Below are positions 12,088-16,909 of a stretch of DNA of 37,187 nucleotides, piece after piece. This DNA comes from an uncultured Verrucomicrobiota bacterium (GTDB taxonomy: Bacteria; Verrucomicrobiota; Verrucomicrobiia; Opitutales; Opitutaceae), in contig CAIVDS010000107.1 in NCBI GenBank assembly GCA_903904685.1, positions 1 through 37,187 on the forward strand, written 5' to 3'. The translations under genes and the position numbers were made by a program. The notes beneath the pieces are model-generated. The model did no database searches. It was not told where the DNA came from and was given only the letters and a program-made list of their open reading frames with translations. Numbering within the stretch: the stretch's first letter is position 1; every line of letters starts with the position of its first letter.

Positions 12088-12447
12088 ATGAACTCGTCCC
12101 GCGTCACCCTTGCAGACTTCGCCCGGCACGCGGGCGTTTCCCGAACGGCGGTGTCGTATGCGTTGCGCGACGATCCGAACATCGCACCGGTCATCCGTGC
12201 GCGCATCCGGAAATCCACCGCCGCGCTCGGCTACCGGCCGGATCCGGTACTGGCGAAAGTCGATGGGCGGGCCGCGGGCGTGCTCCGGTGCTTCCATGAG
12301 AAGGCGTGTCGATTGGATTGTGTCAAAAGGTTCACCTTTTTGGTGTTTGGTGCGGTGGGGAGAGAAGGATTCCCTTGGTCAGGCTTCCATACGCACTCGG
12401 CAAAAAAGTCGGTGCAAGGGGGAGTCCGATTGCTATTATTGATATAA
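12088..12447 (+). pseudogene. Truncated LacI-family transcriptional regulator
   Basis: The first 63 codons are a standard LacI DNA-binding domain: helix-turn-helix at about 6-27 (VTLADFARHAGVSRTAVSYA), then IRARIRKSTAALGYRPDPVL leading into the hinge. After that, from about base 12270, similarity ends. The reading frame continues through unrelated, increasingly A+T-rich sequence and stops at 12447, so the roughly 270-residue ligand-binding and dimerisation domain is missing. The gene diverges from the FAD oxidoreductase, the usual position for its local repressor. A deletion or replacement between 12270 and about 12480 explains this best. The stump could still be translated but should not dimerise normally. 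Confidence 0.8.
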
Positions 12448-12493: not shown

Positions 12494-12613
12494 CTAGCAT
12501 CTAGCAGCCTTGTATCTTGAGCAATAAACCAGCCCAAATCCAATGGTGGCCACGATCAATATCACCGCTATAACACCATATTCACCAGTTGTTGGTTTTC
12601 GGGTCGGTTGCAT
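12494..12613 (-). CDS. Possible 39-residue single-span membrane peptide downstream of the Mg2+ transport genes
   Basis: An ATG at 12613 opens 39 codons ending in TAG. Residues 1-10 are polar and basic (MQPTRKPTTG), 12-30 form one hydrophobic helix (YGVIAVILIVATIGFGLVY), and the tail is basic (CSRYKAARC). This gives a positive-outside-both-ends small membrane peptide of the size of KdpF or MgtS-like partners of P-type pumps. It lies 60 bases after the stop of the second EIIA gene, on the same strand as mgtA. Against it: codon third positions are A+T-rich, no clear ribosome-binding site precedes it, and 40-codon frames arise by chance. Its role, if real, is inferred from position only. Confidence 0.3.
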   Translation of the reverse strand: MQPTRKPTTGEYGVIAVILIVATIGFGLVYCSRYKAARC

Positions 12614-12673
12614 TATATATTGCCCAACGTGACAGATCAGACAGCCATGATCGTTGTCTGTAATTCCCGGCAG

Positions 12674-13492
12674 TTACGTGCCTACTGGAAGTGCGATACA
12701 CTGGTAGAGCGTGCGCTTCCCGGCGCAAGCGGAGGAACTCGTCACGAAGACCCGTCGCCCTCCAAGCGTAAACGAAGTTTCCGTCGGGAGACGCGCCTCG
12801 AGGTTGACGTCCTGTTCGCTCGCCGCCACGAAATCGGCATCTGGAGCGAGCACCATGACCGAGGCCGGACCGGAAACGAGAATCTGAAAAGCAAGCACCT
12901 TGGAATCGGGCCGCGCAGTGGTGGAGACAGGTTGAACGGTTGGCGGAATAGGCCCGGCGGGGACTGCCTGGGTGTGCCGGACGTCGAGTTTGATCATCCG
13001 GGCGATGGATTCCGGACCGGCATCGCCCATGGCGGAACTGACCCAGTCGAGGAGCTGATTGCGGACGGCGTTCAGATCGACCGCTTGCGCGAGAGGGGTG
13101 ATACTCCCGGTCTTCTTGATCGCCTTGACGAGCGTGGAAACTTCCTTGAGGTAAACATTCTTCTGCGCCCCCGGCACGTAATACATCACCACCAGGTGGA
13201 CGAGTTGGTTGTCGACGGCCCCATAGTCGATGCCGGCAGGAGACCAACCCACCGCGCAGAACAGATCCCCTTCCTCGCGACGGGAACGGATATGGGGCAC
13301 GCCAACACCCATGCCGATGCCCGTGTTGCATTCGAGTTCGCGCTTTTGGATTTCTTCGATCGTGTCGGTGCCGACTTCGATGTCGGGATTGGCGTCGAGG
13401 ATGCGGGCGAGGAATTCCAGCGCGCGCGCCTTGCCGGCATCGGGCAATTCAAAGAGCCTGCCTTCTTGGAGAGCGGTGAGGATGCTGCGCAT
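12674..13492 (-). CDS. PTS EIIA (fructose/nitrogen type) domain protein with C-terminal extension
   Basis: Residues 1-150 form a PTS EIIA type 2 domain, as in PtsN and the fructose EIIA. The phosphorylatable His67 is in GIGMGVGVPHIRSR. After it come an alpha-helical stretch, a Pro/Thr-rich linker (about 176-196) and about 75 beta-rich residues (200-272) that match nothing I know. Total length is 272, against about 150 for a plain EIIA. The ATG at 13492 is two bases beyond the stop of mgtA, so translation is likely coupled; the frame is open 11 codons further up but that would overlap mgtA. With no EIIB/EIIC genes nearby, a regulatory role on the Mg2+ pump is inferred. EIIANtr control of K+ transport (TrkA, KdpD) in enterobacteria is the known precedent. 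Confidence 0.85.
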   Translation of the reverse strand: MRSILTALQEGRLFELPDAGKARALEFLARILDANPDIEVGTDTIEEIQKRELECNTGIGMGVGVPHIRSRREEGDLFCAVGWSPAGIDYGAVDNQLVHLVVMYYVPGAQKNVYLKEVSTLVKAIKKTGSITPLAQAVDLNAVRNQLLDWVSSAMGDAGPESIARMIKLDVRHTQAVPAGPIPPTVQPVSTTARPDSKVLAFQILVSGPASVMVLAPDADFVAASEQDVNLEARLPTETSFTLGGRRVFVTSSSACAGKRTLYQCIALPVGT

Positions 13493-13494
13493 AA

Positions 13495-16107
13495 TTAGTC
13501 GAGCCCGAAGCGGCGGGCGAACCACATTTTCACCATGTGAGTGAGCACGCTATAGGCGAGCAGGAATCCCACCATCCAAAGGAAGAAAACGGGCGGCAAA
13601 GGCGTGAGGCCGATGAAACCCGCCAACGGCGAAAACGGCAACCAGCAGCCGATGGCCATGACGGAGACCGTGGTGAATGTCATCGTCTTGCTCGCGCAGC
13701 TCTGAATGAACGGGATTCGTTGCGTGCGGATGATATGCACGATGAGCGTCTGGGTGAGCAGGGATTCGACAAACCAGCCCGTGTGGAAAAGTTGCTCGAA
13801 ATGCGTCTTGGCCGCATCGGTCGTGCCGGTCGCGCCAAACGCCGCGCAACCGAAAAAGTAGAGCATCAGGAAAAATGTCGCATAGTCGAAGATCGAGCTG
13901 ATCGGCCCGATGAACACCATGAAATTACGAATGCTTTTGATGTTCCACCGTCGCGGCTTTGAGAGGTATTCCTCATCGACGTGGTCCAGCGGGATGCCGA
14001 GCTGGGAAAAGTCGTAGAGGAGATTATTGACGAGTACCTGGATCGGCGCCATCGGCAGAAACGGGAGGAAATACGCGCCGCCGACGACGCTGAACATGTT
14101 GCCGAAGTTGGAACTGGCGCCCATCTTTATGTATTTCGTGATATTCCCGAAAACCTTGCGGCCTTCCATGATGCCGTCCTCGAGCACGAGCAGGCTTTTT
14201 TCTAGCAGAATGATGTCGGCGGATTCCTTGGCGACATCGACGGCGGTATCGACGGAGATGCCGACATCGGCGGCCTTCATCGCCAGCACATCGTTGATGC
14301 CGTCGCCCATGAAGCCTACGACATGGCCTTGGGCGCGTAGCGTCTTGATGACTTTTTCCTTCTGGTCCGGGGTGAGTCGCGCGAGAACGTTGGCCTCCTC
14401 GACTTCGCGGGCGAAAGCGGCGTCATCGAGCGCGGCGAGTTGCGGGCCGGTGACCACTTTCGTGATGGTCATGGACACATCGTTGCAGACCTTGCGGGTC
14501 ACGAGTTCGTTGTCGCCAGTGAGTATTTTCACCGTGACGCCGGAGCGGGTAAGCGCGTCGATGGCGCGCGCGGAGGTGTCTTTGGCCGGGTCAAAAAACG
14601 CGATGTAGCCAAGGAGCGTAAGCTGGGCCTCGTCGACCACTGAAAACGTTTGTTTGGCGCGGTCGAACTCGCGGTAGGCGATGGCCAGAACGCGGTAGCC
14701 GTCGGCGCTGAGATTGCGATATTCGTCCATCACGTCGTCACGGATCAACTTGATCAGCGGGTTGATGTCCTCATCCACCTGGTAATTGTCACAGGCCCCG
14801 ATAATCTCCTCAACCGCGCCTTTGCAAATAAGCACATGCCGGTCCTCGTGGTCGATGACGACGGACATGCGGCGCCGCTTGAAGTCGAAGGGGATTTCAT
14901 CGACCTTTTTGCAGTCGCGCTCCACGTCCAGGTCGGTATGCGCGAGGATCGCGCGGTCGAGCAGGTTGCGCAGTCCCGTCTGGTAGAAGCTGTTCATGTA
15001 GGCGTAGCGCAACACGTCCTCGCTCTGGCGGTTGGTTACGTCCACGTAGCGTTCGAGCACGACATGATCCTGGGTGAGCGTGCCGGTCTTGTCGGTGCAA
15101 AGCACGTCCATCGCGCCAAAGTTCTGGATCGCATGAAGGTGCTTAACGATGACCTTTTTACGGGCCATCATCAGCGCGCCTTTGGAAAGGCACACGGTGA
15201 TGATCATCGGGAGCATTTCGGGCGTAAGACCGACCGCCACGGAGAGTCCAAACAACAACGCCTCGGCCCAGTTTCCCTTCGTGAGGCCTACGATTAGGAA
15301 CGTGATCGAGACCATCACGATCATGAGCCGGATCATCAGCCAGGTGAAATCCTTGACGCCGGTGTCGAAGCTCGTGGCCTCGCGCTTGCCCAGGAGTTTT
15401 TGCGCCAACTCTCCGAAATAGGTGCGGCTGCCGGTGGCCAGCACGACGCCGCGGGCGGAGCCGCTGAGCACGTTGGTGCCCATGAAGCAGGCGTTCGTCA
15501 GCTCGAACGGGCCACGACCCGCAGGTTGGTTCGCGTCGGCGTTTTTCTCGACCGGCATTGATTCGCCGGTGAGCGCGGACTGGGTGACAAAAAAATCCTT
15601 GGCTGTGATCACCCGCAGATCGGCGGGGATAAGGCTGCCGGCCGCGAGAATGACGATGTCTCCGGGCACGATTTCTTCGAGGGGCACATCGGTTTCCTTG
15701 CCGTCGCGCAGGGCGGTGACGGTGGTCTTGACGAGTTTCTGAAGCTTATCGACGGCGCGCGAGGAACGGGTCTCCTGCACATATGACAGCACGACGCTCA
15801 GGAACACCATGCCGCCGACCACCACGGTCGAGCGCAGGTCGTCCATGATATAGGAAACCGTTGCGATGATCAGCAGTTGGATGACGAGCGGGTTACGGCA
15901 GCGTTGCAGCAAATCAAAAACCCATGAATGCCGGTTGCCTGTCGCAACGCTGTTGGGGCCGGAGGCCTTGAACTGCGCGGCGGCGGATTCCGACGTGTGC
16001 CCACTGGCTGCACTCCCAAATGTCTGGAAAATGTCGCTCTCCTGCGAAGTAAACCGGGTGGTATCGAATTGCACGCTCGTAAAACCTGCAAACACGCATT
16101 CAACCAT
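13495..16107 (-). CDS. mgtA: Magnesium-translocating P-type ATPase (MgtA/MgtB type)
   Basis: The 870-residue pump has all P-type hallmarks: TGES at 180-183 in the actuator domain, the phosphorylated Asp339 in CTDKTGTLTQD, and hinge motif GFMGDGINDVLAMKAADVG. The M4 sequence AVGLTPEMLPMI (about 291-302) and the NFGAMDVLCTDK block are characteristic of P3B magnesium importers, which bring Mg2+ inward down its gradient at the cost of ATP. GINDVLA replaces the commoner GINDAPA. The last third holds the six C-terminal helices. No M-box or other leader aptamer was recognised upstream. An A+T-rich stretch (16108-16140) precedes the start. It lies between two EIIA genes and directly after an NRAMP-type remnant, all in one direction. 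Confidence 0.95.
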   Translation of the reverse strand: MVECVFAGFTSVQFDTTRFTSQESDIFQTFGSAASGHTSESAAAQFKASGPNSVATGNRHSWVFDLLQRCRNPLVIQLLIIATVSYIMDDLRSTVVVGGMVFLSVVLSYVQETRSSRAVDKLQKLVKTTVTALRDGKETDVPLEEIVPGDIVILAAGSLIPADLRVITAKDFFVTQSALTGESMPVEKNADANQPAGRGPFELTNACFMGTNVLSGSARGVVLATGSRTYFGELAQKLLGKREATSFDTGVKDFTWLMIRLMIVMVSITFLIVGLTKGNWAEALLFGLSVAVGLTPEMLPMIITVCLSKGALMMARKKVIVKHLHAIQNFGAMDVLCTDKTGTLTQDHVVLERYVDVTNRQSEDVLRYAYMNSFYQTGLRNLLDRAILAHTDLDVERDCKKVDEIPFDFKRRRMSVVIDHEDRHVLICKGAVEEIIGACDNYQVDEDINPLIKLIRDDVMDEYRNLSADGYRVLAIAYREFDRAKQTFSVVDEAQLTLLGYIAFFDPAKDTSARAIDALTRSGVTVKILTGDNELVTRKVCNDVSMTITKVVTGPQLAALDDAAFAREVEEANVLARLTPDQKEKVIKTLRAQGHVVGFMGDGINDVLAMKAADVGISVDTAVDVAKESADIILLEKSLLVLEDGIMEGRKVFGNITKYIKMGASSNFGNMFSVVGGAYFLPFLPMAPIQVLVNNLLYDFSQLGIPLDHVDEEYLSKPRRWNIKSIRNFMVFIGPISSIFDYATFFLMLYFFGCAAFGATGTTDAAKTHFEQLFHTGWFVESLLTQTLIVHIIRTQRIPFIQSCASKTMTFTTVSVMAIGCWLPFSPLAGFIGLTPLPPVFFLWMVGFLLAYSVLTHMVKMWFARRFGLD

Positions 16108-16136
16108 TCAATTTAAATATGTGTTGATACACCGTT

Positions 16137-16292
16137 TTAACGCAAACATCCGGTCTGTGCGTAGGTGGAAATTCCACCGGCATCATTGTCCGCGATCATC
16201 GTAATGATCCCAGGACCAAGTCCAGCCAGCAGCAGCAATGTCCGTCGCCGGAACCTCCGAAATGAGTGGATGATTTTACTGATCCAATACAC
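16137..16292 (-). pseudogene. N-terminal remnant of an NRAMP-family divalent metal transporter
   Basis: A frame of 51 codons, opened by a possible GTG at 16292, reads a basic N-terminus and then LLLLAGLGPGIITMIADNDA followed by GGISTYAQTG. This is the first transmembrane helix of NRAMP-type transporters, where the classical DPGN metal-binding motif appears as DAGG. Divergent members with altered TM1 motifs include the NRAMP-related magnesium transporters (NRMT). After YAQTG the frame continues CLR and stops at 16137, whereas a full protein would have about 400 further residues. It lies between the EIIA gene and mgtA in the same direction. I infer a deletion of the rest of a transporter that once shared this operon. 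No alignment was run. Confidence 0.7.
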
Positions 16293-16392
16293 GCGGCGCC
16301 ATGTTCGTAATCACAGGGAACTGATGGCAAGCGGCAAAACGAAACGAGGCCATTTTATCACACACGAAGCGCGGGTGGCAGCCTTCGAGGCT

Positions 16393-16429
16393 CGTCCGTG
16401 TTTGCCAAGATCCGGCTGTGCAAACGACG
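16393..16429 (-). other. Imperfect hairpin just after the first EIIA gene
   Basis: On the minus-strand RNA the arms CGTC-GTTTGC and GCAAAC-GACG pair with a three-base bulge and a 14-base loop. A short GCCT-TCG-AGGC hairpin follows at 16381-16391. There is no T-run, so this is not a typical terminator. It could be a processing or attenuation structure before the NRAMP remnant and mgtA, or chance. Confidence 0.3.
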
Positions 16430-16435
16430 GGCGGT

Positions 16436-16909
16436 TTACCGGGCCGGGAGCTTTTCCTCGGCCGTGACGATCGTCTGAATGAATTGCTCTGGGGTGGTGG
16501 CCTGCATGAGCGCCGCATGATTGGCGGGATCCTTGAAAATCCTGCAGAGCGCGCTGATGATCTGGAGGTAGTCGCCCGGATTCGACATGGGCGTGCCGAG
16601 CACGAACATGAGCTTCACGATTTGGTTGCCGTTTTCAAAGTGGATACCAGTGGAACTGCGACCCACGGCCATGACGATTTTTTTAACGTGTTCGGTGCGG
16701 GAGTGGGGAAGGGCGATCTCGTTGCCGAGGCAGGTCGTGTCGAGGCGTTCGCGGGCGAGTAATTCGGCGTAGAATCCCCGGAAATCCGTCACGTCTGGAT
16801 GTCCCTCGAGGAGGAGGGCGATTTCGTTTAGGGCGACCTCCTGCTGGGTGCTTTGCACTTTCAGCGCGATACGGGATGGGTCGAGTAGCTGGGAGAGGCG
16901 GCCGGCCAT
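16436..16909 (-). CDS. PTS EIIA (PtsN-like) protein
   Basis: The 157-residue product is a single EIIA type 2 domain of normal length. The phosphorylatable His69 is in GNEIALPHSRTEHVKKI, and VGRSSTGIHF plus the helix around YLQIISALCRIF are typical. The N-terminus RLSQLLDPSRIALKVQS matches the start of PtsN-like proteins. Cognate EIIB/EIIC, HPr and EI are absent from the window. Downstream in the same direction come an NRAMP remnant, mgtA and a second EIIA protein. I infer that it regulates metal transport, by phosphorylation-dependent binding, rather than moving sugar. The ATG at 16909 is the first in the frame that fits the family; about 220 non-coding bases precede it. Confidence 0.88.
   Translation of the reverse strand: MAGRLSQLLDPSRIALKVQSTQQEVALNEIALLLEGHPDVTDFRGFYAELLARERLDTTCLGNEIALPHSRTEHVKKIVMAVGRSSTGIHFENGNQIVKLMFVLGTPMSNPGDYLQIISALCRIFKDPANHAALMQATTPEQFIQTIVTAEEKLPAR

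What the first reader, a model, noticed from the sequence alone, without database searches (positions are those of the whole stretch)
12494..16909. Two PTS EIIA proteins flanking an MgtA Mg2+ pump, with no sugar PTS components
On one strand lie EIIA (16436-16909), an NRAMP-type remnant, mgtA (13495-16107), a second EIIA (12674-13492) whose start is 2 bases from the mgtA stop, and a possible 39-codon membrane peptide. Both EIIA domains keep their phosphorylatable His (His69 and His67). No EIIB, EIIC, HPr or EI is nearby. EIIANtr is known to control K+ transport (TrkA, KdpD) in enterobacteria. The arrangement suggests that phosphorylation-dependent EIIA proteins directly regulate Mg2+ import, a link I do not know to be described for MgtA in this group.
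Basis: partly seen in the sequence, partly recalled or inferred. Interest (0 to 1): 0.78.

Follow-up and report, generated by a model that had tools for sequence, protein, structure and literature searches.

The report
PTS EIIA regulators for magnesium transporters
In one branch of bacterial magnesium pumps the pump gene is almost always followed by a gene for a small phosphorylatable regulator of the sugar phosphotransferase type, and related regulators sit beside or are fused to two other kinds of magnesium importer, which suggests that the cell's energy state controls magnesium uptake through them.

Summary
EIIA1, an NRMT-like remnant, mgtA and EIIA2 lie on one strand; EIIA2 starts 2 bases after the mgtA stop; both active-site His are present. 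The 39-codon peptide has no convincing counterpart in relatives.

The pairing is not unique. All 31 family genomes with EIIA2 (of 252) carry it directly behind mgtA, as do 45 of 52 further loci from five phyla (NCBI names). Starting from mgtA in 387 genomes of the phylum, 20 of 21 pumps of this branch have EIIA2 beside them and 0 of 17 more distant pumps do. EIIA1 orthologues sit directly before corA (another Mg2+ channel) in 34 of 69 loci. Two EIIA2 relatives are fused to MgtE, a third kind of Mg2+ transporter.

EIIC (PF02378) is absent from 30 of the 31 genomes while HPr is present in 30; the window's genome has EI and HPr but neither EIIB (PF02302) nor EIIC (PF02378). Best reading: EIIA2 is a dedicated, phosphorylation-switched partner of MgtA, in a PTS without these permeases. 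The functional link is well supported; direct binding and its sign are untested. My searches of an open-access library found no paper describing it.

The parts
12674..13492 (-). EIIA2: 272 aa, EIIA domain (about 1-155), linker, C-terminal domain (about 199-270)
   Evidence: PF00359 64.8 bits; AlphaFold model mean pLDDT 83.3, pTM 0.57, linker 163-196 below 50; nearest solved fold PtsN 1a6j Z 17.3, 148 aligned, rmsd 2.7
13292..13294 (-). His67 codon of EIIA2, aligned with the phosphorylated His of PtsN
   Evidence: 80 of 80 in alignment A2; alignment to 4gqx/3urr
12683..12898 (-). C-terminal domain of EIIA2, no Pfam family; compact alpha/beta, PAS- or roadblock-like, unresolved
   Evidence: mean pLDDT 88.9 when folded alone; best Foldseek E 0.2; best VIA Z 5.9; no consistent Pfam match in 80 members
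13495..16107 (-). mgtA, Mg2+-importing P-type ATPase, 870 aa; DKTGT, TGES and GDGIND motifs present (motifs recalled, read in the translation)
   Evidence: TIGR01524 1101.6 bits over cut-off 610.75; NF011702 1058.4 over 975; translation
16137..16292 (-). 51-codon remnant of an NRMT-type (Mg2+) NRAMP transporter
   Evidence: 7qia_A (EleNRMT) E 4.9e-8 over residues 16-48; a decayed 28-residue match upstream of mgtA in two closely related genomes, L060 and L064; Pfam and NCBIfam give nothing
16436..16909 (-). EIIA1: 157 aa, single EIIA domain, orthologue of the EIIA that precedes corA in many relatives
   Evidence: PF00359 97.9 bits; orthologues followed directly by corA in 34 of 69 loci
16703..16705 (-). 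His69 codon of EIIA1
   Evidence: 69 of 69 orthologues; alignment to PtsN 2a0j

Best explanation
EIIA2 is a dedicated regulatory partner of MgtA, made from the same transcript and probably by coupled translation. It takes its phosphate on His67 from the general PTS chain (PEP, EI, HPr), which in this genome has no EIIB or EIIC of the two families tested. The phosphorylation level therefore reads the PEP/pyruvate (energy) state, and phospho- or dephospho-EIIA2 binds the cytoplasmic domains of MgtA and raises or lowers its activity. EIIA1 belongs to a sister set that does the same for CorA, and in some relatives an EIIA2-like domain is built into MgtE. Shown: gene order, its conservation, the fusion, the intact active-site His and the presence of EI and HPr. 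Inferred: co-transcription, phosphorylation of His67, binding to MgtA and the sign of regulation.
For: (1) 31 of 31 EIIA2 genes in 252 family genomes lie directly behind mgtA (cut by the contig end in some), 28 of them with a gap of 1-12 bases. (3) Search from mgtA, 387 genomes of the phylum: EIIA2 adjacent in 20 of 21 pumps with at least 59% identity and in 0 of 17 with 48-55% (EIIA2 profile at E 1e-25). (4) All 23 EIIA2-profile matches in those 387 genomes are tied to a Mg2+ transporter: 20 behind mgtA, 1 behind a decayed mgtA, 2 fused to MgtE. (5) EIIA1 before corA in 34 of 69 loci; one genome has EIIA1-corA-corA-mgtA-EIIA2. (6) EIIA-linked MgtA form one clade, SH-aLRT 100; MgtA and EIIA2 distances correlate, r 0.93 over 68 pairs. 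(7) EI and HPr present, EIIB and EIIC not found. (8) His67 80/80, His69 69/69. (9) The pair also stands in single-contig genomes (G150, G285), so it is not a binning artefact.
Against: No complex was predicted, and no experiment on any of these proteins was found. Six loci have EIIA2 without mgtA beside it: five related loci behind a glucoamylase-like gene, in the two inspected further within a cluster that I read as zwf-pgl, and L151 (product names recalled). G508 has mgtA of this branch without EIIA2. 35 of the 69 EIIA1 loci do not show corA directly behind (3 of them end too soon to tell, 2 have corA nearby but not as tested). The second active-site His of PtsN is Tyr here in all, so phosphate handling may differ. 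Most titles are metagenome bins. The tree set was gathered through EIIA2, and the outgroup branches are long; correlated distances are expected of any two genes that travel together. Pump positions peculiar to the linked branch lie in residues 340-570 in 15 of 26 cases (30% of conserved columns do), but control clades gave 14/28, 3/6, 14/49 and 20/64.
Confidence: 0.58

Rival explanations
1. EIIA2 and EIIA1 act on gene expression or on a sensor of Mg2+ or K+ status, not on the transporter they sit beside, as Salmonella EIIANtr lowers PhoP-activated mgtA mRNA and E. coli EIIANtr acts on KdpD (the latter recalled).
For: In Salmonella, loss of ptsN raises PhoP-regulated mRNAs, mgtA among those measured, and both H73A and H73E variants restore them (PMC6456747, section 10 read); EIIANtr falls at low Mg2+ (same paper, passages).
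Against: Tight linkage to one branch of pumps in five phyla and the covalent fusion to MgtE point at the transporter protein. A global expression regulator would not need to follow each kind of transporter.
Confidence: 0.2
2. The regulation runs the other way: MgtA, CorA or MgtE (or Mg2+ itself) sets the state of the EIIA proteins, so that they report Mg2+ status to HPr, EI or other targets.
For: EI depends on Mg2+ (recalled); this genome also has an EIIA fused to a diadenylate cyclase and an EIIA-like protein with a helix-turn-helix-like start, outputs that could receive such a signal (the two matches of the latter, 26.5 and 20.2 bits, are under the Pfam cut-offs of 27).
Against: EIIA2 carries an extra domain and goes with one pump, more like a subunit than a common reporter; nothing tested here separates direction.
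Confidence: 0.14
3. These are orphan EIIA components of a sugar PTS that happen to lie here.
For: Best NCBIfam resemblance is to fructose IIA (TIGR00848, 54.1 bits for EIIA2 and 71.8 for EIIA1, below its cut-off 103.5). Three other genomes of the genus do have EIIB and EIIC, and one of the 31 carriers, G029, has EIIC.
Against: EIIC (PF02378) in only 1 of 31 genomes with the pair; EIIB and EIIC not found in the window's genome; the three genus members with EIIB and EIIC lack the mgtA-EIIA2 pair. Other EIIC families (mannose, ascorbate, galactitol type) were not searched.
Confidence: 0.03
4. The linkage is operon hitch-hiking: mgtA and EIIA2 travel as a transferable pair and are co-expressed, with no joint function.
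For: Patchy spread: 31 of 252 family genomes, and no orthologue in the 12 other genomes of the genus (EIIA2 only E 5e-9 or weaker; no MgtA at E 1e-200); distances of the two genes correlate.
Against: A second and a third unrelated Mg2+ transporter family (CorA, MgtE) with related EIIA by adjacency and by fusion; joint decay in a reduced genome.
Confidence: 0.05

Closest known systems
PTSNtr: EIIANtr (PtsN) with K+ transport targets TrkA and KdpD
   Same: Same EIIA fold and Pfam family; nearest solved structures are PtsN; PTS without permease; control of cation uptake (PMC9239096: title and start of abstract in a listing; PMC3665714: abstract; TrkA recalled)
   Different: Below the NCBIfam cut-offs for PtsN; the EI found has no extra N-terminal domain in Pfam, unlike EINtr with its GAF domain (named for Rhizobium in the abstract, otherwise recalled); targets by genomic context are Mg2+ transporters; second active-site His is Tyr; EIIA2 has an added domain
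EIIANtr control of PhoP-regulated genes, mgtA included, in Salmonella
   Same: EIIANtr influences mgtA expression and responds to low Mg2+ (PMC6456747, section 10 and passages)
   Different: Through PhoP, at mRNA level, independent of His73 phosphorylation; no gene-neighbour or physical link to MgtA told in the parts I saw
EIIA-type control of transporters: LacY and MalK by EIIAGlc, LacS with fused EIIA domain
   Same: EIIA acting on a non-PTS transporter, in trans or fused (review PMC10710835, passages)
   Different: Glucose-type EIIA (another fold family, recalled) and sugars; the 12 of 23 places shown name no EIIA acting on MgtA, CorA or MgtE
Cytoplasmic domain of band 3 / SLC4 transporters
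   Same: An EIIA-like fold built onto an ion transporter (Z 8-11; weak in Foldseek)
   Different: No phosphotransfer (recalled); animal transporters; remote
MgtA of enterobacteria (TIGR01524) with small-protein regulators MgtS, MgtR
   Same: Same P-type ATPase family, known to be regulated post-translationally (PMC10925321 and PMC10710835, passages)
   Different: No EIIA gene listed beside mgtA in the 7 annotated plasmid records viewed (PLSDB gene tables are incomplete; the E. coli record has the trehalose EIIBC gene treB about 1.4 kb away on the other strand); an eighth record has no annotation. All 163 plasmid records with MgtA are below 60% identity. The known regulators are membrane peptides

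Membership tests
PTS EIIA, fructose/mannitol/Ntr type (PF00359) | Match above curated cut-off | tested here: met
   97.9 and 64.8 bits against 27; 80 of 80 EIIA2 match PF00359
PTS EIIA, fructose/mannitol/Ntr type (PF00359) | EIIA fold | tested here: met
   EIIA2 model to 1a6j: Z 17.3, 148 aligned, rmsd 2.7; EIIA1 was not modelled
PTS EIIA, fructose/mannitol/Ntr type (PF00359) | Active-site His in PHxR and upstream Arg | tested here: met
   His 80/80 and 69/69; the R of PHxR in 78/80 EIIA2 and 69/69 EIIA1; upstream Arg53 69/69 in EIIA1, Arg51 invariant in EIIA2
PTS EIIA, fructose/mannitol/Ntr type (PF00359) | Second active-site His (role recalled) | tested here: not met
   Tyr114 in 80/80 EIIA2 and 69/69 EIIA1, also in the DAC-fused and both MgtE-fused ones; so it may be a regulatory variant
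PTS EIIA, fructose/mannitol/Ntr type (PF00359) | Phosphorylation by EI and HPr | not testable with these tools
   EI and HPr genes exist, HPr with GIHARPA and NGKS sites
PtsN / EIIANtr equivalog | NCBIfam TIGR01419 or NF008145 cut-off | tested here: not met
   TIGR01419: 59.6 (EIIA1) and 30.7 (EIIA2) against 138.7; NF008145: 37.7 and 32.7 against 221
PtsN / EIIANtr equivalog | EINtr (PtsP) with N-terminal GAF as phosphate source (recalled) | tested here: not met
   The EI found has only PEP-utilisers_N, mobile and C domains; a second, partial PF02896 match at C95 was not examined
Sugar PTS | EIIB and EIIC permease parts | tested here: not met
   PF02302 and PF02378 not found in the window's genome; PF02378 in 1 of 31 carriers; other EIIB and EIIC families not searched
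MgtA (TIGR01524) | Match above curated cut-off | tested here: met
   1101.6 against 610.75 bits
MgtA (TIGR01524) | Mg2+ import | not testable with these tools
   No assay
NRMT (Mg2+ NRAMP) | Similarity to EleNRMT rather than classical NRAMP | tested here: met
   Only metal transporter matched in the PDB sequences at E 10 or better is 7qia, E 4.9e-8, over 33 residues
NRMT (Mg2+ NRAMP) | Full-length transporter | tested here: not met
   51 codons only
PAS domain (C-terminal domain of EIIA2) | PAS fold | tested here: inconclusive
   Roadblock-like and PAS chains at Z 4-6; Foldseek best E 0.2; no Pfam PAS match

The most novel reading that the evidence does not exclude
A 'magnesium PTS': in Verrucomicrobiota and several other phyla a PTS without sugar permeases serves as an ion-homeostasis relay in which a Tyr114-type EIIA family gates three unrelated kinds of Mg2+ importer (MgtA through EIIA2, CorA through EIIA1, MgtE by fusion) and also feeds c-di-AMP synthesis (EIIA-DAC fusion), so that the PEP/pyruvate ratio sets Mg2+ uptake.
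Probability: 0.4. Interest if true: 0.88.

Novelty: new variant of a known kind. Interest (0 to 1): 0.75.

Why it matters
How MgtA and CorA activity is tuned in the cell is only partly understood, and what a permease-less PTS does outside the Proteobacteria is largely open (both from general knowledge). A dedicated EIIA beside a Mg2+ pump, kept across phyla, with the same theme in two unrelated Mg2+ channels and in one a covalent fusion, joins the two questions and makes both testable with one protein pair. Since ATP is used as its Mg2+ complex, a link from PEP state to Mg2+ import would make physiological sense.

Tried and rejected
Sugar PTS: rejected, no EIIB or EIIC (PF02302, PF02378) found in the genome. 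Small membrane peptide 12494-12613: nothing better than E 0.63 in 115 fetched loci, set aside as chance. Mg2+ riboswitch upstream of mgtA: an Rfam gathering scan of the window gave 0 matches. A docking surface on the MgtA N domain from positions peculiar to EIIA-linked pumps: 15 of 26 in residues 340-570, against 106 of 353 conserved columns, but control clades gave 14/28, 3/6, 14/49 and 20/64, so not claimed. C-terminal domain of EIIA2: Foldseek and VIA gave only weak PAS-like and roadblock-like rows; unresolved. EIIA2 in plasmids: only 10 haloarchaeal records with partial matches. Literature, ten searches: PtsN with MgtA in 3 papers (one opened, PMC6456747, relevant; two not opened); MgtE with EIIA in 3 (a review opened by passages; two Mycoplasma genome papers not opened); 'EIIA domain' with 'magnesium transporter' in none; PTS_EIIA_2 with 'P-type ATPase' in none; 'Verrucomicrobia' with PtsN in 5, none opened. 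One search matched 8,849 papers of which only 20 were listed, so it shows no absence. Only an open-access library was searched, so absence from print is not shown.

Full report
WHAT IS THERE. Its nearest relatives by MgtA are Opitutae of the Verrucomicrobiota. On the minus strand lie, in order of transcription, EIIA1 (16909-16436), a 51-codon remnant (16292-16137), mgtA (16107-13495) and EIIA2 (13492-12674). EIIA1 and EIIA2 match PF00359 with 97.9 and 64.8 bits; mgtA matches the Mg2+ ATPase model TIGR01524 with 1101.6 bits. The mgtA stop and the EIIA2 start are 2 bases apart. The active-site His of each EIIA is present (His69, His67). The remnant matches the start of EleNRMT (7qia, E 4.9e-8), a Mg2+-transporting member of the NRAMP family (PMC8806188, passages); a decayed 28-residue form of it stands upstream of mgtA in two closely related genomes. 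The 39-codon peptide has no convincing counterpart (best E 0.63).

TWO DIFFERENT EIIA PROTEINS. EIIA1 is a single domain. 249 of 252 genomes of the taxonomic family give some match to it at E 0.001 (this includes weak matches to other EIIA proteins). EIIA2 is an EIIA domain followed by a linker and a C-terminal domain (about residues 199-270) that no Pfam model describes. AlphaFold models both domains of EIIA2 with good local confidence (mean pLDDT 83.3) but not their relative place (pTM 0.57, linker below 50). The EIIA part fits EIIANtr 1a6j with Z 17.3 over 148 residues at 2.7 A. The C-terminal domain folded alone has pLDDT 88.9 but only weak PAS-like and roadblock-like matches. In both EIIA1 and EIIA2 the second active-site His of EIIANtr is Tyr: 80 of 80 EIIA2 and 69 of 69 EIIA1 (the role of that His is recalled; the alignments are). 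Both fall below the NCBIfam cut-offs for PtsN, so they are relatives of EIIANtr, not filed as it.

SURVEY 1, WITHIN THE FAMILY. A search with EIIA2 in 252 genomes found a full-length orthologue in 31, own included (E below 1e-50). In all 31 it lies directly behind mgtA on the same strand (in a few contigs mgtA is cut by the contig end); the gap is 1-12 bases in 28, and 36, 53 and 253 in the others. A search with MgtA at E 1e-200 found it in 38 of 252 genomes: 29 rows at 64-100% identity, all in EIIA2 carriers, and 11 rows at 46-55% identity, none with EIIA in the 6-10.5 kb stretches fetched around them. None of the 12 other genomes of the genus has an EIIA2 orthologue (best E 5e-9) or an MgtA at that cut-off, so the pair was gained or lost as a unit.

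SURVEY 2, ALL PHYLA. A scan of GTDB genome contigs with the EIIA2 alignment kept the best 80 of 113 relatives. In 73 of 80 mgtA is directly upstream (in L167 its frame is broken near the end). Titles and NCBI taxonomy name Verrucomicrobiota, Lentisphaerota, Elusimicrobiota, one Myxococcota and one Spirochaetota. Of the 7 without mgtA upstream, one is cut by a contig end (L165); five related loci (one titled Elusimicrobia, four titled only 'bacterium') have EIIA2 behind a glucoamylase-like gene, in the two that I inspected further (L143, L162) within a cluster that I read as zwf-pgl; one (L151) has other genes around it (these product names are recalled from the sequences, no family search was run). 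Most titles are metagenome bins.

SURVEY 3, STARTING FROM THE PUMP. Because survey 2 was gathered through EIIA2, I also started from MgtA in 387 genomes drawn evenly from the phylum, and searched the same genomes with the EIIA2 profile at E 1e-25. Of 21 MgtA with at least 59% identity to the window's, 20 have EIIA2 next to them (in G343 without the C-terminal domain, in G285 about 100 and in G083 about 250 bases away); G508 has none. Of 17 MgtA with 48-55% identity, none has it. Of the 23 EIIA2-profile matches in these genomes, 20 are those neighbours, one (G305) stands truncated beside a decayed mgtA in a 0.9 Mb genome whose genus-mate G285 has the pair whole, and two (G434, G360) are N-terminal domains of proteins that continue as MgtE_N, CBS and MgtE, the third family of Mg2+ transporter. 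Five of the 21 are genomes already in survey 1, and others overlap with survey 2. G150 and G285 are single-contig genomes.

SURVEY 4, EIIA1. Among 69 EIIA1 loci of other genomes (the 29 best after the window's own, plus 40 that I chose, one per genome, from further rows, not at random), 34 have a corA gene directly downstream on the same strand; 3 of the 69 end too soon to tell and 2 have corA nearby but not as tested. In 6 of the 11 corA-positive loci among the first 29 a second corA follows. CorA is confirmed by PF01544 on one copy. In G029 the order is EIIA1, corA, corA, mgtA, EIIA2. The window therefore looks like such a locus in which the channels are missing and the pump pair stands behind EIIA1; whether corA exists elsewhere in this genome was not tested. 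A MgtE gene also lies divergently upstream of mgtA-EIIA2 in G170 and G171, and on the opposite strand downstream of the pair in L175.

THE PHOSPHATE CHAIN. The window's genome has an HPr with intact His and Ser sites and an EI of 599 aa with all three EI domains, but neither EIIB (PF02302) nor EIIC (PF02378) was found. Three of the 13 genomes of the genus, G208, G217 and G218, do have EIIB and EIIC; they lack the mgtA-EIIA2 pair. Among the 31 genomes with the pair, EIIC is found in 1 (G029) and HPr in 30, missing only in a bin of 70% completeness. Other EIIB and EIIC families were not searched. This is a PTS that can phosphorylate EIIA but lacks the major sugar permease family, like the incomplete PTS described for Brucella (PMC2937029, abstract). 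The other two EIIA matches of the genome are an EIIA fused to DacZ_P and DAC (diadenylate cyclase) and an EIIA-like protein with a helix-turn-helix-like start (the latter's two matches are just below the Pfam cut-offs).

CO-INHERITANCE. In a tree of 87 MgtA, 68 EIIA-linked pumps are one clade with SH-aLRT 100; 11 unlinked pumps of the family and 8 plasmid references fall outside (quick method, long branches among the references, linked rows gathered through EIIA2). Pairwise distances of MgtA and EIIA2 correlate with r 0.93 over 68 pairs, as expected if the two genes travel together; this does not by itself show contact.

MECHANISM. The most economical reading is a regulatory subunit. Co-translation behind the pump would give matched amounts; His67 gives a switch set by EI and HPr; the fusion to MgtE and the neighbourhood of CorA suggest that the partner is the Mg2+ importer and not some property of P-type ATPases. 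Precedents are EIIAGlc on LacY and MalK and the fused EIIA of LacS (PMC10710835, passages), and EIIANtr in K+ uptake (PMC9239096, title and start of abstract; PMC3665714, abstract). Which form binds, whether it activates or inhibits, and what the C-terminal domain senses are open.

PRIOR WORK. In Salmonella, EIIANtr lowers PhoP-activated mRNAs including mgtA, independently of His73 (PMC6456747, section 10). That is a link of EIIANtr to mgtA expression, not to the pump. Ten searches of an open-access library found no paper on an EIIA encoded with or fused to MgtA, CorA or MgtE; long result lists were seen only in part, and subscription papers were not searched.

VERDICT. The functional link between these EIIA proteins and Mg2+ import is, in my judgement, about 85% likely; direct phosphorylation-dependent control of MgtA by EIIA2 about 58%.

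Noticed in passing
L244:1616-3514 (+) and L245:464-2359 (-): EIIA2-like domain fused in front of MgtE (MgtE_N, CBS, MgtE) in two genomes of the phylum.
   Followed up: partly
L049:4729-6084 (+), own genome contig C112: EIIA fused to DacZ_P and DAC (diadenylate cyclase); many frames of similar size (about 451 aa) give weak EIIA2 hits in other genomes of the family, so this fusion may be family-wide (inferred from size only).
   Followed up: partly
L050:6166-6870 (-), own genome contig C102: Protein with an HTH_17-like start and an EIIA-like end (both just under the Pfam cut-offs): a possible PTS-controlled DNA-binding protein.
   Followed up: no
window 12088-12447 (+): LacI-type regulator cut to 119 codons next to the 3' end of EIIA2; G+C falls from about 0.63-0.65 to 0.57-0.58 here, so a breakpoint may lie near 12.0-12.6 kb.
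   Followed up: no
L246:2991-5139 (G305): In a 0.9 Mb genome mgtA is decayed and EIIA2 truncated side by side; genus-mate G285 (L248) has both whole.
   Followed up: partly
L136, L137, L138, L143, L162: EIIA2 without mgtA, behind a glucoamylase-like gene (in L143 and L162 within a cluster read as zwf-pgl): the same EIIA may have changed partner in one lineage.
   Followed up: partly
L053, L055 (G170, G171): A separate mgtE gene stands divergently about 200 bases from mgtA-EIIA2, so several Mg2+ transporter genes cluster there.
   Followed up: no
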